Source of the DNA: Vandammella animalimorsus
GTDB taxonomy: Bacteria; Pseudomonadota; Gammaproteobacteria; Burkholderiales; Burkholderiaceae_C
Assembly: GCF_002285265.1 (NCBI RefSeq)
Contig: NZ_NSJB01000001.1
Coordinates: 620,001-684,000 of the forward strand
DNA length: 64,000 bases
Direction: 5' to 3'
Under the pieces are notes generated by a model. It was not told the DNA's origin, made no database searches, and saw only the letters and a program-made list of their open reading frames with translations. A program made the position numbers and the translations under genes. Below, in pieces: positions 26,024 through 47,911 of the stretch; the stretch's first letter is position 1; every line of letters starts with the position of its first letter.

Positions 26024-26974
26024 ATGTTCAGCTACCGCCACGCCTTCCACGCCGGCAACCATGCCGATGTGCTCAAGCACACCGTGCTGCTTGCCGCGCT
26101 CGACCACCTTCTGCAGAAAGACACGGCGCTGGCCTTGCTGGACACCCACGCCGGCAACGGGCTGTACCGGCTCGATGGGGATTTTGCCCAGACCAGCGGC
26201 GAAAGCCAGCACGGCATCCAAAAACTGCTCTGGGCCTACCAGCATGGCGAGGCTGGCGAAGGCGGCGCCGACTGGCCCGAGGCGCTGCGGCGCTACGTGC
26301 AGGCGGTGCTGGCGCACAACGGCGCAGCCGCCGCTGCCACCGCAGCGGGCGCTGGCGGCCAGCGCCTGGTGTACCCGGGCTCACCCGCGCTGCTGCAGCA
26401 GCACATGCGCGCGCAGGATCAGCTGCACGTGTTCGAGCTGCAACCGGCCGACATGCGCGCGCTGCAGGGCAATCTGCAGCAAGGCCCACACGCGGCGCGC
26501 TGCCACGTCTGGCACGAGGACGGCTGGCAAGGCAGCCTGCGCCTGCTGCCGCCGCCTTCGCGGCGCGCGCTGCTGCTGTGCGACCCCAGCTATGAGATGA
26601 AAAGCGACTACGCCCAGGCCGCGCAATGGCTGGGCCAGGCGCTGCGCAAATTCGCCACCGGCTGCTACATCGTCTGGTATCCCGTCATCCCGCGCCCCGA
26701 GGCGCACGCCCTGCCGCGCAAGCTCAAGAGCCTGGCCCAGCAGGCCGGCAAGCCCTGGCTGCATGCCACGCTGGCGGTGCGCAGCGGCCAGGGCAGCGGC
26801 CTGCGCCTGCCCGGCCAGCAGGCCCAGCGCCCGGGCATGGTTTGCAGCGGGGTGCTGGTCGTCAACCCGCCCTATACGCTGCAGCCGCAATTGCAACAGG
26901 CCCTGCCAGTGCTGGCGCGCCTGCTGGCGCAGGATGTGCACGCGGCCTACACGCTGCAGAGCAGCGCGCGCTGA
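26024..26974 (+). CDS. rlmJ: 23S rRNA (adenine(2030)-N6)-methyltransferase RlmJ
   Basis: Encodes 316 residues. The N-terminus MFSYRHAFHAGNHADVLKH is the RlmJ signature, LLDTHAGNGLYRL forms the SAM-binding loop, and the catalytic motif is DPSYE from residue 187 (DPPY-type variant of N6-adenine methylases). YPVIPRPEAHALPRKL is also typical. It is longer than the E. coli enzyme (about 280 residues), with an Ala-rich insertion around residues 100-115. It modifies A2030 of 23S rRNA in the cytoplasm. Confidence 0.93.
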   Translation: MFSYRHAFHAGNHADVLKHTVLLAALDHLLQKDTALALLDTHAGNGLYRLDGDFAQTSGESQHGIQKLLWAYQHGEAGEGGADWPEALRRYVQAVLAHNGAAAAATAAGAGGQRLVYPGSPALLQQHMRAQDQLHVFELQPADMRALQGNLQQGPHAARCHVWHEDGWQGSLRLLPPPSRRALLLCDPSYEMKSDYAQAAQWLGQALRKFATGCYIVWYPVIPRPEAHALPRKLKSLAQQAGKPWLHATLAVRSGQGSGLRLPGQQAQRPGMVCSGVLVVNPPYTLQPQLQQALPVLARLLAQDVHAAYTLQSSAR

Positions 26975-27098
26975 GAGAAAGCGCGCCGCCAGCGCCCTGG
27001 ACTGCCGCGCCACCGGCCATCGCCCAGTTGCCGCCCTGCCCCAAGACCACGCCCTTTTGTCTGCCCTTTCGCCTGCCCTTTTGCCTGCCCCTTCAACC

Positions 27099-33454: not shown

Positions 33455-35323
33455 CTACTTGTCAAACCAACTGGGCAGGCCGATGACGTAGCTCTCGGGC
33501 TGGCCGCTGCCAAAGTTGCTGGCGAAGATGATGCGGCTCAAGTCCCGTGAGGCGCTGGCCTGCGGCTCCAGGAAGTAGGCCTGTGCGCCGGGCAGCTGGT
33601 GGAAGTCGTTGGAGTTGCGAATGTGCGCCACGTTCAGCACCCGGCCGCCGGGCTTGAGCTCGGCCAGGATCACCTTCTGGTACTGCGCGCGCCGGTGGCG
33701 CGAGGGGAACTCGGTAACCTCGTTGCCCGAGCCGGGCGGGTCCTCGTACCTGCGGCCGTCCTTGTAGGTGGAAATCACCACCCAGCCGGGCTTGTCAAAG
33801 GCCTGCCCGCTGATGTGCAGGGCGTAGAACTCGCCGCGCGCCGGGTAGATCTCCAGCAGAGGGAAGCGCTGCATCGTGTCGATGTTGATGGCCTGCACGT
33901 GGCCCAGCGTGGCCGGGTCGCTGCCGTCGTCGGCCCAGACGAAGAAATCCTCGCCATTCGGGCCAAAGGCCAGGTCCGAATGCCCGGAGTACTTGGCCAG
34001 CTGCTTGACCTGGCTGAAATCGCGCGTGTAGGCATAGGCGCTGCCCCAGGATGGCACGACGTACTTGCCGCTGGCGGAAATGCTGACGTGGTCTGGCCGC
34101 GCGCCCGGCACAGGAAAGCGATCGGCATCGAGCGTGCCGACGATTTTCTTTTCCACCAGATCCAGCGTCAGCAGCCCATAGACCTTGACGCGCTGGCTGG
34201 CGCTGTCGTAGCGCGTGGCCATCAGGCCCATGTAACGGCCATCGGCGCTGGTCGTGCCTTCGTTGTAGGTCCAGTAATCGCTGGCCTCGGGCCAGGGGGT
34301 CTTGCCGGTGAAGTCAAACAGCACCTGCTTGTTCTCGGTCTCCACGTCCAGCACCCACCAGACCATGCGCTGGCCGTTGGAGGTCATGAACAGCTTGCGC
34401 GGATCGCTGGGGTGCCAGATCGGCTCGGCCGCGCCGCCCAGCGCGCCGATCTTCTTGATCTTCTGGAACGTCTTGGCGTCGTACAGATACCAGGCGCCAT
34501 TGCCGCCCCAGGCCAGATAGCGGCTGTTGTCGGCATTGAAGGCCTGGCGGCGGCTGTAGAAATGGCGCACGCGGCGCAGGCCGCTGCCATCGGGCTCGGC
34601 CTCGCTGGCGGCCGTGGCCCGGTAGATGCGCACGCCGTAGGCCGGATCGATGAAGGCATCGTCTAGCCCTTGCGCGCGCGGCGGCCTGGGCGCCGGCGCG
34701 ATCGGATCCAGCGACAAGGGGCGCAGGCGGAAGTCGCGCGCGTACAGCCCGTCGAATGGATTTTGCGCAACGGGCGCAGGGGCCGGAGCTGACGGCTGCG
34801 GCGCAGGCGGTTGAGGTGCAGGCGGCTGCGGAGCCGGCGCCGGAGGTTGAGGCGCGGGCGGTTGTGGGGCTGGAGGCTGTGGCGCAGGCGGTTGCGGCGC
34901 TGGTGGTTGAGGTGCGGGCGGCTGCGGAGCCGGTGCCGGTGCCGGTGCGGGAGGTTGAGGCGCGGGCGGTTGCGGCGCTGGCGATGGCGGCTGAGGCGCC
35001 GGCGGCTGCGGAACAGGTGCCGGGGGTTCAGGCGCAGGCGCAGGCGGTTGTGGTGCCGGCTGCGGTGCCGGAGGCTGTGGCGCAGGTGGCTGCGGTGCAG
35101 GTGGTCGCGGCGCAGGCCCTGGCGCAGGAGGGGCGATGGGCCCGCCAGGCGTGCCGGGCGCGGGTGTCGGCGCAGGTGTTGGCGCCGGGGCTGGCGAATC
35201 CACGGGCGGTGGCGGGGGCGGGTTCAATGGCCCGTCGCCATCGCCACCGCCACAGGCGGAGACGGACAGGGCCACGGCCGTGCACAGGGCGCAGATGCGC
35301 ATCAGTTGTTGGTGGTGCCTCAT
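33455..35323 (-). CDS. Proline-rich beta-propeller-like lipoprotein
   Basis: Encodes 622 residues. A signal peptide ends in a lipobox with Cys24 (SVSAC followed by GGG). Residues 35-185 are almost only Pro, Ala, Gln in repeats of PPAPQ, a rigid spacer likely holding the rest away from the membrane. Residues from about 190 on contain repeated DLAFGPNGEDFF, YLAWGGNGAWYLYD, KLFMTSNGQRMVWWVLD units that suggest a WD40/TolB-like propeller. AGGAGA at 35331-35336 supports the ATG at 35323. It lies 66 bases behind the last DUF1501 gene and shares the array's anchoring style. Function unknown. Confidence 0.75.
   Translation of the reverse strand: MRHHQQLMRICALCTAVALSVSACGGGDGDGPLNPPPPPPVDSPAPAPTPAPTPAPGTPGGPIAPPAPGPAPRPPAPQPPAPQPPAPQPAPQPPAPAPEPPAPVPQPPAPQPPSPAPQPPAPQPPAPAPAPAPQPPAPQPPAPQPPAPQPPAPQPPAPQPPAPAPQPPAPQPPAPQPSAPAPAPVAQNPFDGLYARDFRLRPLSLDPIAPAPRPPRAQGLDDAFIDPAYGVRIYRATAASEAEPDGSGLRRVRHFYSRRQAFNADNSRYLAWGGNGAWYLYDAKTFQKIKKIGALGGAAEPIWHPSDPRKLFMTSNGQRMVWWVLDVETENKQVLFDFTGKTPWPEASDYWTYNEGTTSADGRYMGLMATRYDSASQRVKVYGLLTLDLVEKKIVGTLDADRFPVPGARPDHVSISASGKYVVPSWGSAYAYTRDFSQVKQLAKYSGHSDLAFGPNGEDFFVWADDGSDPATLGHVQAINIDTMQRFPLLEIYPARGEFYALHISGQAFDKPGWVVISTYKDGRRYEDPPGSGNEVTEFPSRHRRAQYQKVILAELKPGGRVLNVAHIRNSNDFHQLPGAQAYFLEPQASASRDLSRIIFASNFGSGQPESYVIGLPSWFDK
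34769..35221 (-). repeat. Proline-rich coding repeat (PPAPQ units)
   Basis: About 450 bases encode degenerate PPAPQ and PAPAP repeats within the propeller lipoprotein. The DNA is a low-complexity mix of GGCGCAGGCGGTT-type units, prone to slippage and length change. Confidence 0.85.
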
Positions 35324-35389: not shown

Positions 35390-36805
35390 TCAGTGGAAAA
35401 ACCCCAGATCGCGCTGCGAGAAGCGGCCGATGTTGGGCACCACCAGCGGCAAATCCGAGTCGGGCACGCCAAACCATTTGGCCAGGGTGGCCGCGTACTG
35501 GTCCACCGAAGTGGTGGGCAGCAGGCGGCCCTGGCCGATGTCATGGCCTGTGGCCGGATCGAACTCGGCGTCCTGCTCGTACACGGGCGTGCTGCCGTAC
35601 AAGTCCCGGCCCTTGACGGCGTCGCCGACGATGAAGTGCGTGCCGCCCCAGCCGTGGTCGGAGCCATCGCCGTTGGCCACCATGCAGCGGCCAAATTCCG
35701 AGGCCGTGAAGGCCGTCACGCTCTGGCCCAGGTCGAGCTTTTTCATGGTCTCGTAAAAGCCCACCAGCGCGTTGTTGAGCTCGGTCAACAGCGGCGGGTG
35801 CAGCTTGCGCAGGTCGCTGTGGTTGTCAAATCCGCCCAGGGAGACGAGAAACACCTGGCGGCGCACGCCAATGGTGTTGCGCCCGGCAATCAGCCTGGCC
35901 ACCATGGCCAGCTGCTTGCCCAGTGTGCTTTTGGGGATGGCCGCCGCCAGGCTGTCAGGCGCAGTGCTCAGCGCGTTCTGCACCACGTCGCTGGCCTGCA
36001 GCGAGCGGCGCATCAAGCGGTTGAGCTCGTTTTCCAGCATGTGCTGGCGCGATTGGGTGATCAGCGTGCGCAAGGCGCTGATGCAGGTGGCGTTGTTGCT
36101 GCACGCGCCCCACAGGCCGTTGAAGTCGCGCAGCTGCTCGCTGCCGTCCACGCCGATGCGGTAGGCCAGCGCGCTGTCGCCGGCGAGAAACACCGCATTG
36201 CCCGATGCGTTGATGCAGGCAAAGGTGGCGTTGCTCGCGCCGCTGGAGAGCGCCAGATCGCCCAGCGTGCCGCCCCAGCCCTTGACCGAGCCCTCGGGCT
36301 TGGTGCTTTGCCAGACGGATTGCTGGTCGTTGTGCGAGAACAGCTTGGGCGGCAGTGGCATGGCCCCTTGCTTGTACTGCGGCAGGCTCATGGGGCTGAG
36401 CAGCGGGCCGACGTTTTGCTGAATGGCCAGGGCCCCGGCATCGAACAGCTGCCCCAACCCGGCCAGCTGCGGCGCCAGGGCAAATTGCCGGCCTGCGGCC
36501 TGCGCGCTGGCCGGCGCCAGCGTGGTGGCCGCCAGGCTTGAGCGCCCCAGCGCCAGCGACTGGCGCATCCGGGCGTAGGCGGCATAGCCGGCATCGTCCA
36601 CGCGCACCAGGGTGTTGCCGTGGTCGTTGCCGCCGTAGAGGAAGACGCACACCAGCGCCTTGTAGTCGCCGCTGGGAGCGTTGAAGGCCGCGGCCTCGCC
36701 CATGGCCGCCAGGTTCACGGCCCAGGGCGCGGCCACGCCGGCCAGGCCCAGCTGGCCAAAGCGCCGCAAAAAAGCGCGCCGCGAAGTGGTATTGAAATCA
36801 TCCAT
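35390..36805 (-). CDS. DUF1501 protein, array pair 1 (twin-arginine exported, alkaline-phosphatase-like)
   Basis: Encodes 471 residues. The N-terminus holds a Tat motif SRRAFLRRFG (residues 8-17) and a hydrophobic stretch. Metal-site-like motifs of the DUF1501/sulfatase-like fold are present: YGGNDHGN (57-64), SHNDQQSVW, GGFDNH, SEFGR and DHGWGGTHF. The fold belongs to the alkaline phosphatase superfamily, but no substrate is known. It starts 15 bases after DUF1800 copy 1 with GAGG upstream. It is about the same length as the other two array copies and more diverged at the C-terminus. Confidence 0.88.
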   Translation of the reverse strand: MDDFNTTSRRAFLRRFGQLGLAGVAAPWAVNLAAMGEAAAFNAPSGDYKALVCVFLYGGNDHGNTLVRVDDAGYAAYARMRQSLALGRSSLAATTLAPASAQAAGRQFALAPQLAGLGQLFDAGALAIQQNVGPLLSPMSLPQYKQGAMPLPPKLFSHNDQQSVWQSTKPEGSVKGWGGTLGDLALSSGASNATFACINASGNAVFLAGDSALAYRIGVDGSEQLRDFNGLWGACSNNATCISALRTLITQSRQHMLENELNRLMRRSLQASDVVQNALSTAPDSLAAAIPKSTLGKQLAMVARLIAGRNTIGVRRQVFLVSLGGFDNHSDLRKLHPPLLTELNNALVGFYETMKKLDLGQSVTAFTASEFGRCMVANGDGSDHGWGGTHFIVGDAVKGRDLYGSTPVYEQDAEFDPATGHDIGQGRLLPTTSVDQYAATLAKWFGVPDSDLPLVVPNIGRFSQRDLGFFH

Positions 36806-36820
36806 GGCTGGGCCTCTTCC

Positions 36821-38965
36821 TCACTTCTGAACAATGTATTCAGGGCAGCTCATCACCAGCAGGATGGCGGCGCAAACCCGGTTCTTGTCGCCCTCCTGCC
36901 AGTCCAGCGGCACGGCCTGCACGGCCTGCACGATGGTTTGCACCGTCTCTGGCGAGAGCTGCCCGCCGGCCAGCAGCAGGTTCATGCGCTCGACCAGCTG
37001 CTGCGGCTTCGTGGCCAGCGCCAGCTCTGCGGTATAGACCCCGGCCACGGGGTACCAGTCGCGCACCAGCGCCGTCATCAGGTTGATGTAGCGCACCACC
37101 GTGTACTCATCCATGATCTGGAACTCCGGCGCGGTGGCGCCCTGCGTGGCCATTTCGGTGTGCGGCGGCACGAAGCCGGGGCGAAAGAAGTTGAACACCG
37201 AGGCGCTGTCGAACGGGCTTTGCCCCAGGTCTTCGGCCAGGCTCCACAGCGGGAACGTGCCGCTGGCGGCCACTTTGGGGTTTTTGCGCGCCTTGAAGGT
37301 CGCGCCCCATTGCGCCACGCGCAGCATGGGCTCGCGCAGCTTGCCAAACGTGCGCCCTGCCCTGCCCGGCCCGGCGGCGATGGCCTCGGGGTCGAGCAAG
37401 ATGGCCTTGAGCACGGCCTTCATGTCGCCGCGCTGGCCTGCGCCATTGTTGGCAAAGGCCGCCGCCACGCGCGCCACGTACTGCGCGCTGGGGTGGCTGG
37501 TGACCAGGCGCTGGATCAGCTGGCGGCCGATGAAGGGCCCGACGTTGGGGTGGTTGAACAGCAAATCCAGCGCCCAGTCCAGCTTGCGCCGCGCCGGCTC
37601 GGAGCCCGCCATGGTCTGGCCAAACAGCGTCACGTCCTCGGTGGCGTGCCAGTCGGGCCTGAGGGCCATGGGGTTGCGCACGCGCTGCGGGTTCGTGGCG
37701 CGCACATGGCCTCTCTCGTCGTAGTCCCAACCGGTGAAGATGCGCGCCATGTTGGTGACGGTCTCCTGCGTGTAGGTCTCAATCGGCTTGCCGCCTGCCA
37801 TTTTCAGGCTACCGTCCTGGTTGAGCTCATGCAGACCAATGGAGAACAGCTGCATGACCTCGCGCGCGTAGTTCTCATCGGGGATGCGACCGGTCTGCGG
37901 ATCGCCACGGCGGTTGCCGCGGCTGCTCAGGTACGCGCCCATGGCCGGGCTGAGCGAGACATCGCCCAGCAGCGTGCGGTAGTTGCCAAAGGCATTGCGC
38001 ATCAGCATGTCCCAATAGGCGGCCACGGCAAACGAAGGCGACTCGATGGGCAGCCCGGTGTTGGAGATGACGAAGATCTCCGACAGCGCCAGCGCCACCC
38101 GCTTGCGCAGCCCATCGACAGGGTTCATCAGCAGCGCCCACATCATGTGGGTGGCGAACTCGTGCGAGTACAGGGCCGCTATGCGGTTGGCCCCCTCGCG
38201 CAGCAGCCAGTCCCAGCCCGTCATCTCCGACTGCGCCGCCCCCAGCTTGCCATCCAGCCAGGGCTCATAGCCCTGGCGCTGGATGTCGGCGATGTCCTGC
38301 TCGGTGACGTAGTACTGCGCGCGCAGGATGAAGGTCGCCGCCTCGGCGGGCGTTTGTGGCCGGGGCAAGCCCGGTGCTGGCGCCGGGCTGGGGGCTGGCG
38401 CAGGCGCTGGGCTGGGCGTTGGCGTGGGGGCCGGGGCAGGTGTCGGGCTTGGCGCCGGCGTGGGCGATGGCGTCGGGCCAGGCGGCGCGGGCGTTGGTGC
38501 CGGGCCAGGGGTTGGCGCGGGCGAAGGCGAAGGCGTGGGCGTAGGTGCCGGCGGCGGTGTCGGCACGGGCGCGGGCGCCGGGGCCGGAATGGGCGCTGGC
38601 GGGCGGTTCGGGTCTGGCGGCGGGCCAGCCACTGGCGGGTTTTGCGGCGCGCCGCCCGGTGTGGGCGCCGGGCTCGGGCCGGGGTTGGGCCCGGGCGCAG
38701 GCGGCATGCCCGGCGCGGGCGGGGCCGCACCATCGCCCCCGCCGCCGCAAGCTGCCAGGGTAAAGGCCAGCATGGTCGACAGACTGCCGACATTGCGCAG
38801 CGCTGGCGAACCCAGCGCCGCGCCAACACCCAGCAGGCTGCCCAGCAAGTGCCTGCCTTGCGGTGCCGTAGCAGGCAAGGCAGCTGGCTGGGCCTGTTCT
38901 GGCTTGCTCTGCCCAGCCAGCGGGCCTGGTGCATCACCCAGCGGGCGAGAGGATGAACTCGACAT
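36821..38965 (-). CDS. DUF1800 protein, array pair 1
   Basis: Encodes 714 residues. Residues 1-72 are a long extension ending in a hydrophobic segment and lipobox-like LAAC with Cys73; residues 81-204 are Pro/Ala/Thr-rich; from 205 the DUF1800 domain begins (RPQTPAEAA). Typical strings: NAFGNYRTLLGDVSLSPAMG, RIPDENYAREVMQLFSIGLHELN, IFTGWDYD, FIGRQLIQRLVTSHPS, SVFNFFRPG. AGGGGG before the ATG at 38965 supports the start. It is followed directly by its DUF1501 partner. The role of DUF1800 is not known. Confidence 0.88.
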   Translation of the reverse strand: MSSSSSRPLGDAPGPLAGQSKPEQAQPAALPATAPQGRHLLGSLLGVGAALGSPALRNVGSLSTMLAFTLAACGGGGDGAAPPAPGMPPAPGPNPGPSPAPTPGGAPQNPPVAGPPPDPNRPPAPIPAPAPAPVPTPPPAPTPTPSPSPAPTPGPAPTPAPPGPTPSPTPAPSPTPAPAPTPTPSPAPAPAPSPAPAPGLPRPQTPAEAATFILRAQYYVTEQDIADIQRQGYEPWLDGKLGAAQSEMTGWDWLLREGANRIAALYSHEFATHMMWALLMNPVDGLRKRVALALSEIFVISNTGLPIESPSFAVAAYWDMLMRNAFGNYRTLLGDVSLSPAMGAYLSSRGNRRGDPQTGRIPDENYAREVMQLFSIGLHELNQDGSLKMAGGKPIETYTQETVTNMARIFTGWDYDERGHVRATNPQRVRNPMALRPDWHATEDVTLFGQTMAGSEPARRKLDWALDLLFNHPNVGPFIGRQLIQRLVTSHPSAQYVARVAAAFANNGAGQRGDMKAVLKAILLDPEAIAAGPGRAGRTFGKLREPMLRVAQWGATFKARKNPKVAASGTFPLWSLAEDLGQSPFDSASVFNFFRPGFVPPHTEMATQGATAPEFQIMDEYTVVRYINLMTALVRDWYPVAGVYTAELALATKPQQLVERMNLLLAGGQLSPETVQTIVQAVQAVPLDWQEGDKNRVCAAILLVMSCPEYIVQK

Positions 38966-39097
38966 CGCGTACCCCCTATGACGACTCAAGGTGTCGCAGA
39001 CCATGAAAAGGCGCTGCAGCCTAGCCTGGCGGCAAGGCCAGGCCCCAGCGCAACGCCCAATCGCCCCAAGCCCACAAGGCGCTTGAGACCTGTGCGG

Positions 39098-40507
39098 TTA
39101 GCCAAAGAATCCCAGGTTGGAGCTGGCAAAGTTGCCGATATTGGGCACGACCAGGCGCATCTCCGAATCGCTCACGCCGAACCAGCGCGCCAGCGTGGCG
39201 GCGTATTCGTCCACCGAGGCGGTGGGGATCATGCGCCCCTGGCCCACGTCCAGGCCAGTGCTGGGGTCGTAGTCCGCATCGACGTGGTAGATCGGCGTCT
39301 TGCCGTAAATGCCACCCTTGACCGCACCGCCCAGCACCATGTGGGTGCTGCCCCAGCCGTGGTCGGAGCCATTGCCGTTGGTGACCATGCAGCGCCCGAA
39401 CTCCGAGGCGGTGAAGGCTGTGACCTGCTCGGCCATGTTCAGCTTGCGCATGCTTTCGTAGAAGCCATAGAGCGCGTCGTTGAGCTCGGTGAGCTTTTCC
39501 GGGTGGCGCGTGGCGAGCAGGGCGTGGTCGTCAAAACCCGACAGCGAGACGAAGAACACCTGGCGGCGCACGCCAATGGCGCGGTTGCCGGCGATGAGCC
39601 GGGCCACGATGGCCAGCTGCTTGCCCAAATTGGTATCGGGGATGTCCGAGACCTTGTCCTCCGTGCCAATGGCCAGCATGGCATCGACCTGGTCGCTGGC
39701 GGCCATGGAGCGGCGCATCATGCGGTTGAGTTCTTCTTCGAGCATGTGCGGGCGCGCCTCGGTCACCAACTCGTGCAGCACGTCCTGGCATTGCCTGGTG
39801 CCGATGCAGCCGCCGGACTGGTTGTTGAAATCGCGCACCCGCGCCGCGCCCTGGGTACTGATGCGGTAGGTCAGCGCGCTCTGGCCGGAGATGAACACCG
39901 CCTGGCCTGCGGCCGAGATGCAGGCAAAGGTGGAGTTGGTCGCGCCGCTGGCCAGCGCCAAATCGCCCATGGCCCCGCCCCAGCCCTTGACCGAGCCTTC
40001 GGCGTGCGAGCTTTGCCAGACGGACTGCTGGTCGTTGTGCGAGAACAGCTTGGGCGGCAGCGGCACCGAGCGTCTGCGGTATTGCTCCAGCGTCGTGGGC
40101 ACGATCAGCGGGCCGACGTTTTGTTGGATGGCCAGTACCCCCTGGTCGTAGAGCTTTTTCAGCTTGCCCAGCTGCGGCGCCAGCGCAAAGCGCTGGCCGC
40201 TGGGCTGGCCTGCGCTGGCTGCCAGCGTGGTGGCCGCCAGGCTGGCGCGCGCGGTGGCAAAGCCCGCACGCATCTTCGCGTAGGAGGCGTAGCCGGCATC
40301 ATCGACGCGGATCAGCGTGTTGCCGTTGTCGTTGCCGCCGTAGAGGAACACGCACACCAAGGCCTTGTAATCGCCGCCGGCATTGAAGGCGGCGGCCTCG
40401 CTGATGGCTGCCAGATTCATCGCCCAGGGCGCAGCCGCACCGGCCAGCCCCAGTTGCCCGAAACGGCGCAGGAAGGCGCGGCGCGAAGTGGTATTGAAAT
40501 CGTCCAT
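39098..40507 (-). CDS. DUF1501 protein, array pair 2
   Basis: Encodes 469 residues closely related to the pair 1 and pair 3 copies. Tat motif SRRAFLRRFG near the N-terminus; YGGNDNGNTL, SHNDQQSVW, GFDDHALL, SEFGR and DHGWGSTHM at the conserved places. The second metal-type segment reads DDH rather than DNH, a small change between paralogues. The ATG at 40505-40507 is used; a GTG three codons upstream is possible. It lies 19 bases after DUF1800 copy 2. Confidence 0.9.
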   Translation of the reverse strand: MDDFNTTSRRAFLRRFGQLGLAGAAAPWAMNLAAISEAAAFNAGGDYKALVCVFLYGGNDNGNTLIRVDDAGYASYAKMRAGFATARASLAATTLAASAGQPSGQRFALAPQLGKLKKLYDQGVLAIQQNVGPLIVPTTLEQYRRRSVPLPPKLFSHNDQQSVWQSSHAEGSVKGWGGAMGDLALASGATNSTFACISAAGQAVFISGQSALTYRISTQGAARVRDFNNQSGGCIGTRQCQDVLHELVTEARPHMLEEELNRMMRRSMAASDQVDAMLAIGTEDKVSDIPDTNLGKQLAIVARLIAGNRAIGVRRQVFFVSLSGFDDHALLATRHPEKLTELNDALYGFYESMRKLNMAEQVTAFTASEFGRCMVTNGNGSDHGWGSTHMVLGGAVKGGIYGKTPIYHVDADYDPSTGLDVGQGRMIPTASVDEYAATLARWFGVSDSEMRLVVPNIGNFASSNLGFFG

Positions 40508-40526
40508 GATTGGCACCTTTTCTTTG

Positions 40527-42650
40527 TTATTTCTGCACGATGTACTCGGGGCAGCACATCACCATGAAGATGGCTGCGCGCACGCGGTTGGTGCGTGACT
40601 CATCGCCGCCGCCAATCCAGACGGATTCGGCCGCCTGGGCAATGCGCTCGACCGTGCGCTGCGACAGCTGGCCACCGGCCAGTATCAGGTTCAGGTAGCG
40701 CACCAGCCGCAGGGGCTCATCCACCATCGTCAGCTCATGGCGGTAGTCGCCCTCCACCTGGTGCCAGCTGCGCAGCAGCGCATTCATGGTGTTGATGTAA
40801 CCCACGACCGTGTATTCATCGAGGATCTGGAACTCCGGCGCCGTGGCCCCCTTGGCCGCCATGGCCGTCTGCGGCGGGATGTAGCCAGGGCGGAAGAAGT
40901 TGAACACCGACATGCTGTTGAGCGGCGTCTGGCCTACGTATTCCGTCAGGTCGTACATGGGAAAGGAGGCCCTGTTGGGCGCGCCGGGCCTTTTGCGCGC
41001 CTTGAAGGTCGCGCCCCATTGGGCAATGCGCAGCATGGGCTCGCGCAGCTTGCCAAAGTCGCTGGGGGCTTGGCCCTCGGTGGCGGCCATCACTTCCGGG
41101 TCCAGCAGCACAGCCTTGATCACGGCCTTGAGGTCGCCGCGCTGGCCGCGGCCGTTGTTGGCAAAGGCCGCCGCCACGCGCGCCACGTACTGCGCGCTGG
41201 GGTGGCTGGTGACCAGGCGCTGGATCAGCTGGCGGCCGATGAAGGGTCCGACGTTGGGGTGGTTGAACAGCAGATCCAGCGCCCAGTCCAGCTTGCGCCG
41301 CGCCGGCTCGGAGCCCGCCATGGTCTGGCCAAACAGCGTCACGTCCTCGGTGGCGTGCCAGTCGGGCTTGAGGGCCATGGGGTTGCGCACGCGCTGCGGG
41401 TTCGTGGCGCGCACGTGGCCTCTCTCGTCGTAGTCCCAGCCGGTGAAGATGCGCGCCATGTTGGTCACGGTCTCCTGCGTGTAGGTCTCGATCGGCTTGC
41501 CGCCTGCCAGCTTCAGGCTGCCGTCCTGGTTGAGCTCATGCAGGCCGATGGAGAACAGCTGCATCACCTCGCGCGCGTAGTTCTCATCGGGGATGCGGCC
41601 CGTGCGCGGATTGGCGCGGCGGTTGCCGCGGCTGCTCAGGTACGCGCCCATGGCCGGGTTGAGCGAAATCTCGCCCAGCAGCGTGCGGTAGTTGCCAAAG
41701 GCATTGCGCATCAGCAAGTCCCAATACGCCGCCATGGCAAAGGTGGGGGACTCGATCAATACCTCACGGCTGGCCACCACGAGGATTTCCGACCAGGCCA
41801 GCGCCACCCGCTTGCGCATGCCATCGACGGGGTTCATCAGCATGAACCACGACATATAGCCCGTGTGCTGCGTGTTGAGGTGCTCCTCGGTGTTCAGGCC
41901 TTCGCGCATGGCCCATTGCCAGCCGGTCATCTCGCGCTGCGGCGCGGCCAGCTGCGCATCCAGCCAGGGCTCATAGCCCATGCGCTGGATGTCCTCGATG
42001 TCCTTTGGCGTCACGAAATGCTGGCAGCGCAGAATGAACGAGGCCGCCTGCTCGGGCGTTTGAGGCCGCCGCACGGATGGCGACGGTGAGGGCGATGGAC
42101 TGGGCGCTGGCGAAGGCACCGGGCCTGGAGCTGGCGCCGGGCCTGGAGCCGGCGCTGGTGTTGGCGCGGGCGAAGGTGTGGGCGCGGGTGAAGGTGTGGG
42201 CGCGGGCGTGGGTGCCGGCGGCGGTGTGGGCACAGGCGCGGGCGCCGGGGCCGGCGGAATGGGCGCGGGCGGGCGGTTCGGGTCTGGCGGTGGGCCGGCC
42301 ACTGGCGGGTTTTGCGGCGCGCCACCCGGCGCGGGCGCCGGTGTTGGGCCCGGGTTGGGGCCGGGCGCTGGCGGCATGCCTGGCGCAGGCGGGGCCGCAT
42401 CGTCGCCCCCGCCGCCGCAGGCGGCCAGGGTAAAGGCCACCATGGCCGCCAGGCCGCTGGAGCTGCGCAGCGCCGATCCAGCCAGGGCGGAGCCCACGCC
42501 CAGCAGGCTGCCCAGCGAAATCTGCGCGGCATCGGCAGGCGGCGCAGGCACCGCCTGGGCCGTGCTCGCCGCAGGCTCGCGCTGCGGCATTGGCTGGCCC
42601 GGCTGCTCAGGCCGTGGCTCTTGCTCGGTTTGTGGTGATTCAATCTTCAT
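40527..42650 (-). CDS. DUF1800 protein, array pair 2
   Basis: Encodes 707 residues with the same layout as copy 1: N-terminal extension, lipobox-like LAAC with Cys78, Pro-rich linker (86-192), then the DUF1800 domain. AAAGGG eight bases before the ATG supports the start at 42650. Its middle coding stretch (about 41150-41515) is nearly identical in DNA to 37430-37800 of copy 1, far closer than the flanks, a sign of gene conversion. Confidence 0.88.
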   Translation of the reverse strand: MKIESPQTEQEPRPEQPGQPMPQREPAASTAQAVPAPPADAAQISLGSLLGVGSALAGSALRSSSGLAAMVAFTLAACGGGGDDAAPPAPGMPPAPGPNPGPTPAPAPGGAPQNPPVAGPPPDPNRPPAPIPPAPAPAPVPTPPPAPTPAPTPSPAPTPSPAPTPAPAPGPAPAPGPVPSPAPSPSPSPSPSVRRPQTPEQAASFILRCQHFVTPKDIEDIQRMGYEPWLDAQLAAPQREMTGWQWAMREGLNTEEHLNTQHTGYMSWFMLMNPVDGMRKRVALAWSEILVVASREVLIESPTFAMAAYWDLLMRNAFGNYRTLLGEISLNPAMGAYLSSRGNRRANPRTGRIPDENYAREVMQLFSIGLHELNQDGSLKLAGGKPIETYTQETVTNMARIFTGWDYDERGHVRATNPQRVRNPMALKPDWHATEDVTLFGQTMAGSEPARRKLDWALDLLFNHPNVGPFIGRQLIQRLVTSHPSAQYVARVAAAFANNGRGQRGDLKAVIKAVLLDPEVMAATEGQAPSDFGKLREPMLRIAQWGATFKARKRPGAPNRASFPMYDLTEYVGQTPLNSMSVFNFFRPGYIPPQTAMAAKGATAPEFQILDEYTVVGYINTMNALLRSWHQVEGDYRHELTMVDEPLRLVRYLNLILAGGQLSQRTVERIAQAAESVWIGGGDESRTNRVRAAIFMVMCCPEYIVQK

Positions 42651-42876
42651 GGCAACAGCCCTTTTACTGTCAATTTCAAACCCGCAGCTGTGCTGCATGC
42701 GGCTGGCTCAAGCCAACACCGCCACATGGCCTGCGGGCAGTTCATCGATCATTGCGGCTTGGACGCCTTGGGCAAAACAGCGCTGCTTGGGGGCCAGGCT
42801 GCAAACCGCAGCCCGCGCCCAGTCGGCATCGGTTTTGGCCCAGGGCCTCAGGCCTGTTCAAAATCTCAGCGCGGCC

Positions 42877-44295
42877 TCATCGGAAAAAGCCCAGGTTGGA
42901 GCTGGCAAAGTTGCCGATATTGGGCACCACCAGGCGCATCTCCGAATCGCTCACGCCGAACCAGCGCGCCAGGGTGGCGGCGTATTCGTCCACCGAGGTG
43001 GTGGGAATGGCGCGGCCCTGGCCTATGTCGTGGCCGGTTTCCTCGTTGAAGTCCTTATCAGTGAGGTAGCTGGGCGTCGTGCCATAGATCTTGCCGCCCT
43101 TGACCGCGCCGCCGATGATGAAGTGCGTGCCCGCCCAGCCGTGGTCGGAGCCATTGCCGTTGGTGACCATGCAGCGCCCGAACTCCGAGGCGGTGAAGGC
43201 CGTGACCTTGTCGGCCATGTTCATGTCGCTCATGTGTTCGTAGAACTGCACGAGCGCGTCGTTGACTTCCTTGAGCTTGCCCCGGTGCGTGGTGTTCAGG
43301 CCCACGTGGTGGTCGAAGCCGCCCAGGGAGACGAAGAACACCTGCCGGCGCACGCCCAGCGAGGTGTGGCCAGCAATCAGGCGAGCTACGATCTTCAATT
43401 GCTTGCCCAAGGTGGTATTGGGCATGCGGCTGAACCTGTCGGCGCCGTGCTGCTGCAAGGCCGCGTCGACCTTGTCGCTGGCATCGATCGAGCGCCGCAT
43501 CATGCGGTTGACCTCATCTTCCAGGATGTGCGCGCGCGTCTCGGTGATCATTTCGCGCAAGATGTCCGAACACTCCTGCACATTCCTGCAAACACCAGCG
43601 CGGCTGCCGATCAAGTCCCTGACCTGAGCGGCACCGTCGGTGCTGATGCGGTAAGTCAGCGCGGCCTGGCCAGCGAGGAACACGGCCTTGCCATCCGCCG
43701 AAATGCAGGCAAAAGTGGCATTGGTGGCGCCGCTGGAGAGCGCCAGATCACCCAACGTCCCGCCCCAGCCCCTGACGGCCCCTTCCGGGTTGGAGGCCTG
43801 CCAGATCGACCTCTGGTCGTTGTGCGAGAACAGTTTGGGCGGCAGCGGCACCCTGCGCGCTTTGTAATCGGCCAACGTGGTAGGCACAATCAGCGGGCCA
43901 ACGTTTTGCTGAATGGCCAGCACCCCCTGGTCGTAGAGTTTTTTCAGGCCGCTCAGTTGCGGCGCCAGCGCAAAGCGTTGGTCACCAGCTTGCCCCGTGT
44001 TGGCCGCCAGCGTGGTGGCGCCAAGCTCGGCGCGCGGGATGGCAAACTCCTCGGTGCGCATGGTCTCGTAAGACGCATAGCCATCGTTATCGACGCGAAT
44101 CAGCGTATTGCCGTTGTCGTTGCCGCCGACCAAAAAAACACACACCAGGGCCTTGTAATCGTTGCCGGCATTGAAGGCTGCGGCCTCTCCGATAGCAGCC
44201 AGGTTCAAGGCCCAGGGCGCAGCGCTGCCAACCACCCCCAAGTGCCCCAGGCGGCGCAGGAAGGCACGGCGCGAAGTCTTGTTGAAATCATCCAT
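42877..44295 (-). CDS. DUF1501 protein, array pair 3
   Basis: Encodes 472 residues. Tat motif SRRAFLRRLG, then VGGNDNGNTL, SHNDQRSIW, GGFDHHVGL, SEFGR and DHGWAGTHF. It shares the CGSDSEMRLVV-like C-terminal region (FGVSDSEMRLVVPNIGNFASSNLGFF) with pair 2, while pair 1 differs there. The ATG at 44293-44295 is chosen; a GTG three codons upstream is possible. It starts 15 bases after DUF1800 copy 3. Confidence 0.9.
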   Translation of the reverse strand: MDDFNKTSRRAFLRRLGHLGVVGSAAPWALNLAAIGEAAAFNAGNDYKALVCVFLVGGNDNGNTLIRVDNDGYASYETMRTEEFAIPRAELGATTLAANTGQAGDQRFALAPQLSGLKKLYDQGVLAIQQNVGPLIVPTTLADYKARRVPLPPKLFSHNDQRSIWQASNPEGAVRGWGGTLGDLALSSGATNATFACISADGKAVFLAGQAALTYRISTDGAAQVRDLIGSRAGVCRNVQECSDILREMITETRAHILEDEVNRMMRRSIDASDKVDAALQQHGADRFSRMPNTTLGKQLKIVARLIAGHTSLGVRRQVFFVSLGGFDHHVGLNTTHRGKLKEVNDALVQFYEHMSDMNMADKVTAFTASEFGRCMVTNGNGSDHGWAGTHFIIGGAVKGGKIYGTTPSYLTDKDFNEETGHDIGQGRAIPTTSVDEYAATLARWFGVSDSEMRLVVPNIGNFASSNLGFFR

Positions 44296-44310
44296 GACTG
44301 ACACCCTTTC

Positions 44311-46398
44311 TTATTTCTGAACGATGTACTCGGGGCAGCACATCACCATGAAGATGGCTGTGCGCACACGGTTTTTCCGGCTTGCTTCATCCTTGACGGC
44401 AATGGCCTCGGCGGCCCGGACGATGCGCTCGAAGTTGCGCTGCGAGAGCTGGCCGCCTGTGAGCATGAGGTTCAGGTGCGCCACCAGGCGCGAGGGCTCG
44501 TCGGCCATGGGCATCTCGCGGCTGTAGTCGCCCACCACCTGCCGGTCATCGCGCACCAACTCGGCCACCACATTGATGTAGCTGGCCACGGTGTATTCAT
44601 CGAGGATCTGGAACTCCGGCGCCGTCATACCCCGCGCTGCCATGGCCGTTTGCGGCGGCACATAGCCAGGGCGGAAGAAGTTGAACACCGTCGGGCTGTT
44701 GAGCGGGTGCTGGCCAATCTCCTCCATGAACAAGGGCAATGGGAAAGACAGCCGCGATGTCGAGCTGGCCTTCTTGCGCGCCTTGAAAGTCGCGCCCCAT
44801 TGGGCGATGCGCAGCATGGGCTCGCGCAGCTTGCCAAAGTCGTTGGGCAACGCCTGCCCTTGCGTGACGGCCATGACCTCCGGATCCAGCCAGATGGCCT
44901 TGAGCACGGCCTTCATGTCGCCGCGCTCGCCGCGGCCATTGTTGGCAAAGGCCGCAGCCACGCGCGCCACGTACTGCGGGCTGGGATGGCTGGTCACCAG
45001 CCGCTGAATCAGCTGGCGGCCGATGAAGGGCCCGACGTTGGGGTGGTTGAAGAGCAGATCCAGCGCCCAGTCGAGCTTGCGCCGCGCCGGCTCGGAGCCA
45101 GCCATGGTCTGGCCAAACAGCGTCACGTCCTCGGGCGAGTGCAAATCGGGCCTGAGGGCCATGGGGTTGCGCTCGCGCATCGGGTTCGTGCCCTTTGTGT
45201 GGCCCGTCATGTCGTAGTCCCAGCCGGTGAAGATGCGCGCCATGTTGCTCACGGTCTCTTGCGTGTAGGTCTCAATCGGTTTGCCACCGGCCATCTTCAG
45301 GCTGCCGTCCTGGTTGAGCTCGTACAGGCCGATGGAAAACAGCTGCATCACCTCGCGCGCGTAGTTCTCATCGGGGATGCGGCCCGTGCGCGGATTGGCG
45401 CGGCGGTTGCCACGGCTGCTCAGGTACGAGCCCATGGCCGGGCTGAGCGAGACATCGGTCAACAGCGTGCGGTAGTTGCCAAAGGCATTGCGCATCAGCA
45501 AATCCCAATACGCCGCCACTTTGAACTGGGACGACTCGCCCCGCAGCTCCACCGTGGAAACCACGAAGATCTCCGACAAGGCCAGCGCCACCCGCTTGCG
45601 CACCCCGTCGATGGGGTTCATCAGCAGGTACCACATCATGTAGGGCACATCCTGGTAGTTGATGGTCTCCAGGGTGTTGAGCTTCTCTCGCAGGCTCCAG
45701 TCCCAGCCAGTGATCTCTTTTTGCGGCGCGGCCAGCTTCGCATCCAGCCAGGGCTCGTAACCCATGCGCTGGATGTCCTCGATGTCCTCTTCCGTCACGT
45801 AATGCTGGCAGCGCAGAATGAACGAGGCCGCCTGGGCAGGCGTCTGGGGCCGCAGCACGGATGGTGACGGAGATGGCGCTGGCGAAGGCACCGGGCCTGG
45901 GGCTGGGGCCGGGCCAGGGGTCGGCGCTGGTGCAGGCGCTGGGCCTGGGGTTGGCGATGGCGTAGGCGCGGGCGAAGGCGTGGGTGCCGGGGCCGGGGGA
46001 ATGGGTGCGGGCGGGCGGTTCGGGTCTGGCGGCGGGCCGGGCACCGGCGGGTTTTGCGGAGAGCCGCCTGGCACCGGAGCGGGCGTGGGCCCAGGGTTGG
46101 GGCCAGGCGCAGGCGGTATGCCTGGCGCGGGCGGGGCCGCATCGTCGCCCCCGCCGCCGCAGGCGGCCAGCGTAAAGGCCACCATGGCAGCCAGGCCGCT
46201 GGAGCTGCGCAGGGTGTGCGAAGCTACGGCCGAGCCCAGGCCCAGCAGCGCGCCCAGCGAAGGCAGGGCTTGGGATGGAGGCTGTGGCGCCGGCGGCAGT
46301 GCTCTGGCCTGCGCCGCTGCGGCATCGGGCGCGCTGTGCGGCGCGGCAGGCGCGGCTTGCGCCTCTTTTTCCGGCGGTGGGGACGATGCAATAGTCAT
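44311..46398 (-). CDS. DUF1800 protein, array pair 3 (first gene of the array)
   Basis: Encodes 695 residues. N-terminal extension of 79 residues, lipobox-like LAAC with Cys80, Pro-rich linker (88-180), then DUF1800 with the same motif order as copies 1 and 2. AGAGGG before the ATG at 46398 supports the start; the frame is open upstream but shows no family resemblance. As the most upstream gene it probably sets expression of the array from the AT-rich promoter island at 46560-46680. Confidence 0.88.
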   Translation of the reverse strand: MTIASSPPPEKEAQAAPAAPHSAPDAAAAQARALPPAPQPPSQALPSLGALLGLGSAVASHTLRSSSGLAAMVAFTLAACGGGGDDAAPPAPGIPPAPGPNPGPTPAPVPGGSPQNPPVPGPPPDPNRPPAPIPPAPAPTPSPAPTPSPTPGPAPAPAPTPGPAPAPGPVPSPAPSPSPSVLRPQTPAQAASFILRCQHYVTEEDIEDIQRMGYEPWLDAKLAAPQKEITGWDWSLREKLNTLETINYQDVPYMMWYLLMNPIDGVRKRVALALSEIFVVSTVELRGESSQFKVAAYWDLLMRNAFGNYRTLLTDVSLSPAMGSYLSSRGNRRANPRTGRIPDENYAREVMQLFSIGLYELNQDGSLKMAGGKPIETYTQETVSNMARIFTGWDYDMTGHTKGTNPMRERNPMALRPDLHSPEDVTLFGQTMAGSEPARRKLDWALDLLFNHPNVGPFIGRQLIQRLVTSHPSPQYVARVAAAFANNGRGERGDMKAVLKAIWLDPEVMAVTQGQALPNDFGKLREPMLRIAQWGATFKARKKASSTSRLSFPLPLFMEEIGQHPLNSPTVFNFFRPGYVPPQTAMAARGMTAPEFQILDEYTVASYINVVAELVRDDRQVVGDYSREMPMADEPSRLVAHLNLMLTGGQLSQRNFERIVRAAEAIAVKDEASRKNRVRTAIFMVMCCPEYIVQK

Positions 46399-46726: not shown

Positions 46727-47752
46727 TCACTCCAGCGCATCGGCAATGGGCTGCGTGGGCACGTTGCTGACGTCGTAGTGCAAGAAGGCAATCAGGCATT
46801 GCACGCCCACCATCACCGTCAGGCCGGCCAGCATCACTGTGCCGCTGCTGGCCGGCACGTCGGTGGCAATGCTGTGCTGCCAGTGGTAGATGCCAAAGGG
46901 CAAACCAAAGCCCAGCAGCAGCAAGGCCATGGCGCTGTAGAGCGAGCCCAGGTTGAAGTCGCGCACCCAGTAGCTGTAGGCATAGCGCTTGAGCGCGCGC
47001 GAGAGGTTGCCCAGCAGGAACTGCGGCAGCACCTGGCGGATTTTCAAATTCGAGACCTCCTGCGCATACACCGCGTCCATGGGCACGTCGCGCACCACGG
47101 CGCGCAGCGTGCCCAGGCGAAACAGCATGTCCGTCTCGAAAAAGTAGCGCCGGGCGATGCGCTGCAGCGGCAGCGCCCTGAGCACCTTGGCCGAGATGGC
47201 GGTGTAGCCATTGGTCGGATCCATGTTGGGCCAGTAGCCGCTGCTGAGCTTGGTGAGAAAGGACAGCACCAGATTGCCCAGCAGGCGCACGCCGGGCATG
47301 CTGCGCAGCGACTCGGGGCGGTAGAAGCGGTTGCCCTTGGTGTAGTCGGCCTGGCCGCGCACGATGGGCTGCACGAACCGGGGGATCAGCGCCGGGTCCA
47401 TCTGGCCATCGCCATCGACCTTGACCACCACTTGCGCGCCCAGCTCCAGCGCGCGCGCGTAGCCGCTCATCACAGCCGCGCCCACGCCCTGGTTCTCGGT
47501 GTGAAACAGCACCTGCACGCGCGCATCGCGCACCTGCTGCTGCACCAGCTGGCCGCTGCCCTGCGGGCAGGCGTCGTCCACCACCAGCACGTGGCGCACG
47601 CCCGCAGGCATGGCCTGCAGCACCTCCAAAATGTGCGCGCTGACCTTGTAGCAGGGAATGACCACCGCCACAGCCGCCTGCGCCAGGCAGGCATCGCGCT
47701 CGGCTTGGGCCGGCGTTGGCGGGGCGACTTCGGTGCAGTGGGCGGCAGGCAT
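46727..47752 (-). CDS. Family 2 glycosyltransferase with C-terminal membrane helices
   Basis: Encodes 341 residues. A GT2 domain ([28 protein letters not shown] as the metal-binding acidic motif) is followed by about two C-terminal transmembrane helices. This fits dolichyl/polyprenyl-phosphate sugar synthases or related bactoprenol glucosyltransferases. It is on the same strand and just upstream of the DUF array, 328 bases away, but probably has its own promoter. A TTG six codons upstream of the chosen ATG is an alternative start. Confidence 0.88.
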
Positions 47753-47911
47753 GGGGGGCAACACGGGCAAGGGGCAAACAAAAGGGTCGCAAACGCGCCG
47801 ATACTAACCGCCAGCAGGCGCGGCGACGGCCATGGCATGGCGCACAATCGCCCCCTGCGCCGAGATCTTCAACGGCGTTGAGCGCCTGCCACACCATCGA
47901 CACCGACAGCC

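What the first reader, a model, noticed from the sequence alone, without database searches (positions are those of the whole stretch)
35390..46398. Three tandem DUF1800-DUF1501 gene pairs
Six genes on one strand are arranged as 1800-1501, three times over, with 15-19 bases inside each pair and 130-230 bases between pairs. DUF1800-DUF1501 pairing is known in several phyla, but three paralogous pairs in a row with matched proline spacers is striking. The DUF1501 members have twin-arginine signals and alkaline-phosphatase-superfamily metal motifs; the DUF1800 members look lipid-anchored. I infer three variants of one exported two-part machine, possibly with different targets. This is the best candidate for an undescribed system in the window.
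Basis: partly seen in the sequence, partly recalled or inferred. Interest (0 to 1): 0.82.

Follow-up and report, generated by a model that had tools for sequence, protein, structure and literature searches.

The report
Tripled DUF1800–DUF1501 gene pair array
A common but functionally uncharacterised bacterial gene pair (a probable exported enzyme and a probable lipid-anchored partner) has been copied three times in a row in a few related bacteria, and the copies keep exchanging the middle of the partner gene; the pair and its doubling were already known, the function is not.

Summary
Six minus-strand genes form three DUF1800→DUF1501 pairs (Pfam scores far over cut-off), the genome's only copies. 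The genus is Vandammella (inferred from a matching named contig). It is not a misassembly: V. animalimorsus and one MAG carry the same three copies, each orthologous across the three species (SH-aLRT 98–99) and under purifying selection (dN/dS 0.13–0.22).

It is not an undescribed system. The pair is widespread (DUF1800 in 286 of 399 family genomes), published as one operon, with a two-pair tandem in print (PMC5122149). I also found an independent triple array in another family (L209), plus doubles.

New here: the middle of the three DUF1800 genes is homogenised by gene conversion (A–B 97.5% nucleotide identity, against 75.8% for A with its own ortholog), while residues 60–120 and 360–510 diverge about as in single-copy relatives. 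So diversification towards different targets is not supported. DUF1501 is predicted AlkP-fold with a Tat motif; DUF1800 a lipoprotein whose confident model matches no PDB fold.

Most likely: a lipoprotein plus exported AlkP-type enzyme acting on envelope glycans, in three retained copies. Substrate unknown.

The parts
44311..46398 (-). DUF1800 copy C (first of array; ATG of MTIASS; lipobox Cys codon 46159-46161; Pro-rich spacer; domain from about 45855 down)
   Evidence: Pfam 281.0 bits; lipobox and 102 aa linker
42877..44295 (-). DUF1501 copy C (ATG of MDDFN; twin-arginine signal; AlkP-like motifs)
   Evidence: Pfam 130.5 bits; motifs intact
40527..42650 (-). DUF1800 copy B (ATG of MKIESP; lipobox Cys codon 42417-42419)
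   Evidence: Pfam 283.5 bits; 116 aa linker; structure model pLDDT 88.6
39098..40507 (-). DUF1501 copy B
   Evidence: Pfam 131.8 bits; structure model pLDDT 74.8
36821..38965 (-). DUF1800 copy A (ATG of MSSSSS; lipobox Cys codon 38747-38749)
   Evidence: Pfam 284.8 bits; 128 aa linker
35390..36805 (-). DUF1501 copy A (last of array)
   Evidence: Pfam 127.6 bits
37522..37762 (-). gene-conversion tract in DUF1800 copy A (about domain residues 202-282)
   Evidence: 97.5% nucleotide identity to copy B (234/240) versus 75.8% (182/240) to its own ortholog in V. animalimorsus and 81.7% (196/240) to that in the MAG
41231..41471 (-). matching tract in DUF1800 copy B
33455..35323 (-). Pro-rich lipoprotein gene 66 bases downstream of copy A, C-terminal ~420 aa without a Pfam match; possible seventh member
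   Evidence: present in exactly the 3 of 10 genus genomes that have the array; same place in V. animalimorsus; 10 of 399 family genomes have it at E<=1e-10. The three genomes are close relatives, so the link may be lineage chance
46727..47770 (-). GT2 glycosyltransferase upstream of the array on the same strand; probably context only
   Evidence: Pfam PF00535; matches at 69% identity or more in 8 of 10 genus genomes, five of them without the array

Best explanation
Each pair makes a two-part envelope enzyme. DUF1501 is a Tat-exported, metal-dependent hydrolase or transferase of the alkaline-phosphatase fold (phospho- or sulfo-ester chemistry). DUF1800 is a lipoprotein, probably of the outer membrane, that holds or presents it through a long proline-rich spacer, most likely to tailor a cell-surface or envelope glycan. 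In the common ancestor of three Vandammella species one pair was copied twice (order of splits A,(B,C)), and all three copies have been kept under purifying selection. Gene conversion keeps the DUF1800 middle alike in all copies, consistent with a shared interface or active centre. SHOWN: pairing, the copies, orthology, purifying selection, conversion, lipobox and RR motifs. PREDICTED: the AlkP fold. INFERRED: metal use, membrane location, physical partnership, substrate, and why three copies are kept.
For: All 62 DUF1501 matches in 60 loci fetched by DUF1501 alone have a DUF1800 directly upstream on the same strand, median gap between matched domains 16 bases. DUF1501 model: 14 PDB matches at E<=1e-3, all choline sulfatase, then other sulfatases, YejM and LtaS. 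R12 R13, D63, SHND 159-162, D329, H331, S-x-F-G-R and D385 H386 invariant in 58 sequences. Lipobox in 79 of 87 untruncated DUF1800s by pattern, 7 of them Vandammella, mostly followed by Gly. Nine Vandammella DUF1501s form one clade, with A, B and C each orthologous over three species. dN/dS 0.13-0.22 between orthologs of all six genes. Conversion. Published operon link of DUF1800/DUF1501 with chitin synthase and a sugar epimerase, i.e. glycan genes, in other bacteria (PMC5122149).
Against: The DUF1501 fold matches are weak (TM about 0.3, rmsd over 13, model pLDDT 74.8). No solved structure matches either family by sequence at E<=1. In the ten single-pair loci whose gene calls I printed, neighbours are mostly housekeeping or unrelated genes, so they say nothing of the substrate. 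No chitin synthase sits next to this array; the one PF03142 hit elsewhere in the genome is weak, and that family also rings in E. coli. No complex could be predicted. A structural, non-enzymatic role is not excluded.
Confidence: 0.45

Rival explanations
1. Scavenging enzyme: the DUF1501s strip phosphate or sulfate from external organic esters for nutrition, and the triple copy simply raises dose.
For: AlkP/sulfatase-like fold; gene conversion and purifying selection on all copies suit dosage.
Against: No Pho-box-like site in the array: 4 window matches at up to 3 mismatches, 3.7 expected, none between 35390 and 46398 (consensus recalled). A fixed partner gene in all 62 cases is unusual for a plain scavenging hydrolase.
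Confidence: 0.2
2. Three specificity variants of one machine, each with its own target.
For: 100 of 469 DUF1501 and 90 of 516 DUF1800 columns are fixed within each ortholog set but differ between copies, densest at DUF1501 about 205-290 and DUF1800 60-120 and 360-510. All nine Vandammella values for DUF1800 360-510 (1.27-1.59) lie above the single-copy median of 1.23, one above the 95% bound of 1.48 (the nine are not independent). The L212 double exceeds the range at DUF1501 205-290 (2.15).
Against: In Vandammella these regions diverge about as in single-copy relatives: DUF1501 205-290 relative divergence 1.46-1.63 versus a 5-95% range of 1.22-1.71; DUF1800 60-120 scaled to the partner 1.14-1.50 versus 1.01-1.80, and eight of nine values at 360-510 inside 0.95-1.48. 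They look like the variable parts of the families.
Confidence: 0.2
3. Neutral lineage-specific tandem amplification with no special purpose.
For: Doubles and another triple occur sporadically in other genera; 7 of 10 genus genomes have no DUF1800 match.
Against: Three copies kept intact in three species with dN/dS 0.13-0.22.
Confidence: 0.15

Closest known systems
DUF1800-DUF1501 operon linked to bacterial chitin synthase genes (PMC5122149; passages read)
   Same: Same two families side by side; Tat motif on DUF1501; a tandem double in Agrobacterium vitis.
   Different: Three pairs rather than two; no chitin synthase or epimerase beside it; long Pro-rich spacers; converted middle of DUF1800.
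Alkaline phosphatase superfamily (sulfatases, LtaS, YejM/PbgA periplasmic domains)
   Same: Predicted fold and conserved D/H motifs of DUF1501.
   Different: No sequence match to any solved chain at E<=1; Tat motif; fixed DUF1800 partner; the nucleophile was not identified.
DUF1501 module of Planctomycetes/Verrucomicrobia (PMC4452313, PMC4960237; passages read)
   Same: Same DUF1501 family in genomic clusters, several of whose proteins have signal peptides.
   Different: The partner there is, by recall, a PSCyt/PSD protein; no PSD or PSCyt match in 58 DUF1800 sequences at E<=10.
Independent tandem arrays found here (L209 triple; L155, L156, L157, L212 doubles; L210+L211 four pairs in about 25 kb)
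   Same: Whole pairs copied on one strand (L210/L211: spaced several kb apart).
   Different: L209 copies are 33-38% identical to Vandammella DUF1501s and form their own clade; in L155, L156, L157 and L209 the DUF1800 240-308 region is not homogenised as in Vandammella; L212 is slightly low (0.53).

Membership tests
DUF1501 (PF07394) | Pfam score over the curated cut-off across the domain | tested here: met
   127.6, 131.8 and 130.5 bits versus 27, covering profile 2-381 or 2-383 of 390
DUF1800 (PF08811) | Pfam score over the curated cut-off across the domain | tested here: met
   284.8, 283.5 and 281.0 bits versus 26.1, profile 4-418 or 10-418 of 419
Alkaline phosphatase superfamily | AlkP fold | tested here: inconclusive
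   Top 14 Foldseek matches at E 1.1e-4 to 4.7e-4, probability 0.95-0.99, are all choline sulfatase, followed by other AlkP members; TM about 0.3
Alkaline phosphatase superfamily | two-metal site residues (D, D/H, DH) and nucleophile | tested here: inconclusive
   D63, D329, H331, D385, H386 and SHND 159-162 invariant in 58 sequences; assignment to metal sites is by recall and inference, geometry not measured
Alkaline phosphatase superfamily | phospho-/sulfo-ester activity | not testable with these tools
   needs protein
Tat substrate | S/T-R-R-x-F-L motif at the N-terminus (consensus recalled) | tested here: met
   TSRRAFLRR in all three copies; R12 R13 F15 L16 invariant in 58; export itself not tested
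Bacterial lipoprotein | lipobox ending in Cys after a hydrophobic stretch | tested here: met
   TLAAC|GGGG in A, B and C; 79 of 87 untruncated rows by pattern; the n-region before it looks unusually long
Chitin-synthase-linked DUF1800/1501 operon | chs gene adjacent | tested here: not met
   neighbours are GT2 (PF00535), CreA, the Pro-rich lipoprotein and MlaE; the only PF03142 hit in the genome is 33.8 bits on another contig
PVC DUF1501 module | PSCyt/PSD partner protein (recalled) | tested here: not met
   no PSD/PSCyt match for 58 DUF1800s at E<=10; PF07587 rang in 0 of 200 phylum genomes and in no control, so that search alone shows nothing
Anti-phage defence system | PADLOC model match | tested here: not met
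   0 families for 4 proteins (copy B of each, the lipoprotein, GT2) at E<=0.01

The most novel reading that the evidence does not exclude
DUF1800 has a fold not yet in the PDB and is the constant half of a surface machine whose enzyme half is DUF1501. Bacteria repeatedly build tandem sets of whole pairs, and in Vandammella gene conversion keeps the docking core of the scaffold alike while three enzyme-scaffold faces stay distinct, so that three envelope esterases or transferases share one assembly interface, perhaps with the downstream Pro-rich, propeller-like lipoprotein as a third part.
Probability: 0.2. Interest if true: 0.65.

Novelty: new variant of a known kind. Interest (0 to 1): 0.42.

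Why it matters
DUF1800 and DUF1501 are each found in about seven in ten of the 399 family genomes examined, and no paper passage I saw gives them a function. A tandem set in which gene conversion separates the constant from the variable parts of DUF1800 points to where a shared interface may lie, and the single-pair relatives give a simple deletion test. If DUF1800 really is a new fold, it is also a structural-biology target.

Tried and rejected
Misassembly or single-copy collapse: rejected, the same three orthologous copies occur in two other species. Inactivated copies: rejected. Uniqueness of the triple array: my first view, from 56 of 56 loci outside Vandammella with one pair (many cut by contig ends), was overturned by the order-wide search that led to L209. 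Accelerated divergence of variable regions: looked real in raw windows and for DUF1800, but that measure is biased by the converted middle; scaled to the partner gene it is mostly within the single-copy range. Permutation test as proof of conversion: not specific, since 6 of 36 sequence pairs reached 0 of 2000, one of them an ortholog pair; the ortholog comparison is the real evidence. Conversion of the same middle in other arrays: not seen in L155, L156, L157 or L209, slight in L212. Chitin synthase link: none here. PVC PSD1 homology of DUF1800: no support, and no PVC sequences were at hand for a profile comparison. Defence and phage families: none. Promoter scan: 1 site found, 1.4 expected, on the other strand; terminator-like sites 16 versus 9.1 expected (sd 3.4), both strands, not followed. 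Pho box: chance level. Neighbour clustering in single-pair loci: dominated by shadow frames. Complex prediction: not possible with a single-chain tool.

Selection and dropped rows: loci were found with DUF1501 patterns of this subfamily. The 32 loci were picked by me from the listing, two of them because they looked tandem, so 5 of 32 with tandem pairs is not a frequency. One 10-base region (L184) was fetched by a placeholder entry and not used. One search dropped six short rows; A3 and A4 then each used 3 window rows and 55 of the 59 listed relatives. The tree is the quick tree because the careful search did not finish. In one search the linker values for G002 copy B (502) and probably L141 (264) come from wrong anchors and are not used. 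Family searches score at most 4 or 5 candidates per genome and list a capped number of places, so array counts elsewhere are lower bounds. Of the ten papers that hold DUF1501, three (PMC5418858, PMC5587647, PMC5888151) were seen in the listing only.
Full report
OBSERVATION. The window lies in a draft genome of 3.10 Mb in 22 contigs. The genus is inferred: the same-genus genome G002 carries the locus on a contig of 792,788 bases, the length of the named V. animalimorsus contig NZ_NSJF01000001.1 that matches at 94%. Six genes run on the minus strand as DUF1800-DUF1501, three times. In order of transcription: copy C (44311-46398 and 42877-44295), B (40527-42650 and 39098-40507), A (36821-38965 and 35390-36805). 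All pass the Pfam cut-offs by a wide margin, and whole-genome searches found three matches of each family, all here.

DISTRIBUTION. DUF1800 is over cut-off in 286 of 399 genomes drawn from the family and DUF1501 in 287 of 399, so the families are ordinary there. In the genus 3 of 10 genomes have DUF1800: this one, V. animalimorsus (G002) and MAG S17M_Sa_16 (G009), each with three matches. A collection scan with the DUF1501 alignment gave 60 loci. In 59 there is one pair and in one, V. animalimorsus, three; all 62 DUF1501 matches have a DUF1800 directly upstream, median gap 16 bases. Three of the 59 are single-pair contigs of the MAG; the other 56 lie outside Vandammella, many cut by contig ends. 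So the pair is a fixed two-gene unit, and within this scan the triplication is confined to Vandammella.

ARRAYS ELSEWHERE. The triple is not unique as an arrangement. Among 32 family loci that I chose, L155, L156 and L157 hold two tandem pairs, and L174 and L176 more than one, cut by contig ends. A search of 280 genomes of the order led to L209, a triple array in another family with paralogs 53-64% identical; L212, a double at 83%; and four pairs in about 25 kb in G717 (L210+L211; DUF1501s 34-50% identical). The L209 DUF1501s form their own clade (support 1.0, FastTree) and are 33-38% identical to the Vandammella ones, so that array arose independently. A tandem double in Agrobacterium vitis is in print (PMC5122149, passages seen). 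PMC6946804 names COG4102 and COG5267 among uncharacterised families linked to paralog expansions in SAR202 (passage seen; that these COGs are DUF1501 and DUF1800 is partly recalled, DUF1501 = COG4102 being shown in the table passage of PMC6329079).

HISTORY OF THE THREE COPIES. In a tree of 84 DUF1501s (quick method) the nine Vandammella sequences form one clade with support 100; A, B and C each unite the three species (99, 98, 99), and B and C are sisters (99). The nearest others are single pairs at 54-56% identity from the MAG S5R_St_7 and Comamonadaceae bacterium OH2545_COT-014. Orthologs show dN/dS of 0.13-0.22 in all six genes, so no copy is decaying. In two of five array-less genus members fetched, the GT2 and MlaE genes lie under 3 kb apart with what appears to be one oppositely oriented gene between them, which reads like a TonB-dependent receptor (by eye); in the other three MlaE was not in the 20 kb fetched. 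GC of the array (0.671) equals that of the window (0.677).

GENE CONVERSION. The three DUF1800 genes are alike in the middle and different elsewhere. That this is exchange and not only constraint is shown by silent sites and by orthologs. In the 80-codon tract ending near domain residue 282, own copy A is 97.5% identical to own copy B (234 of 240 bases) but 75.8% to its own ortholog in V. animalimorsus (182 of 240) and 81.7% to that in the MAG (196 of 240). A run of identical polymorphic sites as long as the A-B one was reached in 0 of 2000 permutations, but so it was for 6 of 36 pairs, one of them an ortholog pair, so this test alone is not specific. The MAG shows a separate B-C exchange of 240 identical bases; the MAG is fragmented, so that one could be an assembly effect. 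As control I scaled DUF1800 divergence to the partner DUF1501 in 1,194 pairs among 51 single-copy loci. For the nine Vandammella paralog pairs, residues 121-239 (0.20-0.65; single-copy 5-95% range 0.87-1.44) and 309-359 (0.31-0.70; 0.78-1.39) are below the range in all nine, residues 240-308 (0.00-0.65; 0.58-1.22) in eight of nine, and residues 1-59 (0.74-1.22; 1.09-2.07) in eight of nine. Residues 60-120 (1.14-1.50; 1.01-1.80) are inside it, and 360-510 (1.27-1.59; 0.95-1.48) inside it in eight of nine, though all nine exceed the median of 1.23. So the two variable stretches are close to ordinary and the rest is held together. The other arrays do not show it at 240-308 (0.89-1.21; L212 0.53).

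PROTEINS. DUF1501: the N-terminal SRRAFLR motif is invariant in its R, R, F and L over 58 sequences. The model (pLDDT 74.8, pTM 0.80) has 14 PDB matches at E<=1e-3, all choline sulfatase, then other sulfatases, YejM and LtaS. TM-scores are only about 0.3, so the AlkP call rests on consistency of matches and conserved D/H motifs rather than on a close superposition. DUF1800: a mostly helical model at pLDDT 88.6 and pTM 0.90 has no PDB match at E<=1e-3 among 350,542 chains. The same method finds a phage-labelled DUF1800 in the viral library at E 5e-20, a positive control. Profile searches find no solved relative of either family at E<=1. A lipobox is present in all three DUF1800s and in 79 of 87 untruncated rows by pattern; several misses visibly have it. 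The Pro-rich linker is 84-132 aa (45-48% Pro) in the six Vandammella copies measured, against a median of 29 aa in 45 single-pair relatives; of these, L101 and L107 (Polaromonas, 183 and 148 aa, 43% Pro) and L102 (112 aa, 17% Pro) are also long.

NEIGHBOURS. The GT2 gene upstream of the array is found at 69% identity or more in 8 of 10 genus genomes, five of them without the array, so it is context. The Pro-rich lipoprotein downstream occurs in exactly the three genomes with the array, but these are close relatives, and in the 17 loci of its homologs elsewhere (8 other genomes) no DUF1800 or DUF1501 was found in the roughly 1.5 kb flanks fetched, so a functional link is only possible. In the ten single-pair relatives whose gene calls I printed, neighbours are mostly housekeeping or unrelated genes such as tsaB, rimI and pyrF (names by eye). 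Nothing around this array reveals the substrate. The only published hint I saw is the chitin-synthase operon link in other bacteria (PMC5122149).

LITERATURE. Searches for DUF1501 (10 papers), DUF1800 (4), both (2), accession and COG names (4), DUF1800 protein names (0) and PSCyt/PSD names (2) gave no function in the passages I saw (passages; one search showed none). Three of the ten DUF1501 papers were seen in the listing only. PMC4452313 states that DUF1501 lacks biochemical characterisation. The library holds open-licence papers only, so other work may exist.

VERDICT. A real, intact, lineage-specific triple array of a known gene pair of unknown function. The likely mechanism is an exported AlkP-type enzyme with a lipoprotein partner that acts on envelope glycans, at confidence 0.45. 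What is new is the conversion pattern and the recurrence of arrays, not the pair. The claim of an undescribed system with three targets is not supported.

Noticed in passing
window 33455-35323 (-): Lipoprotein with a ~170 aa Pro-rich spacer and a ~420 aa C-terminal part without Pfam, PADLOC or PHROG match and no PDB match better than E 0.4; looks like a beta-propeller by eye. In 3 of 10 genus genomes, the same three that have the array.
   Followed up: partly
window 20862-25163 (+): 1433 aa single-module NRPS-like protein (condensation, AMP-binding, carrier, thioesterase).
   Followed up: no
window 26934-29081 (+): 715 aa frame with only a weak, partial Glyco_hydro_42 match.
   Followed up: no
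G009 contigs C114, C287, C314 (L075-L077): The MAG's three pairs sit on three separate contigs, which break in or beside the array, as expected for near-identical repeat middles.
   Followed up: partly
L209 5120-15263: Independent triple DUF1800-DUF1501 array in another family of the same order.
   Followed up: partly
L210-L211 (G717 contig 22): Four DUF1800-DUF1501 pairs within about 25 kb, spaced several kb apart, DUF1501s 34-50% identical.
   Followed up: partly
BFVD A0A6J5M749: A DUF1800 protein labelled as from an uncultured Caudovirales phage; could be a true phage gene or a mislabelled contig.
   Followed up: no
window 35390-44295, DUF1501 residues 237 and 243 (copy B numbering): Two cysteines in the variable helical insert are kept in all three copies, though the residues around them differ; possible disulfide.
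   Followed up: no
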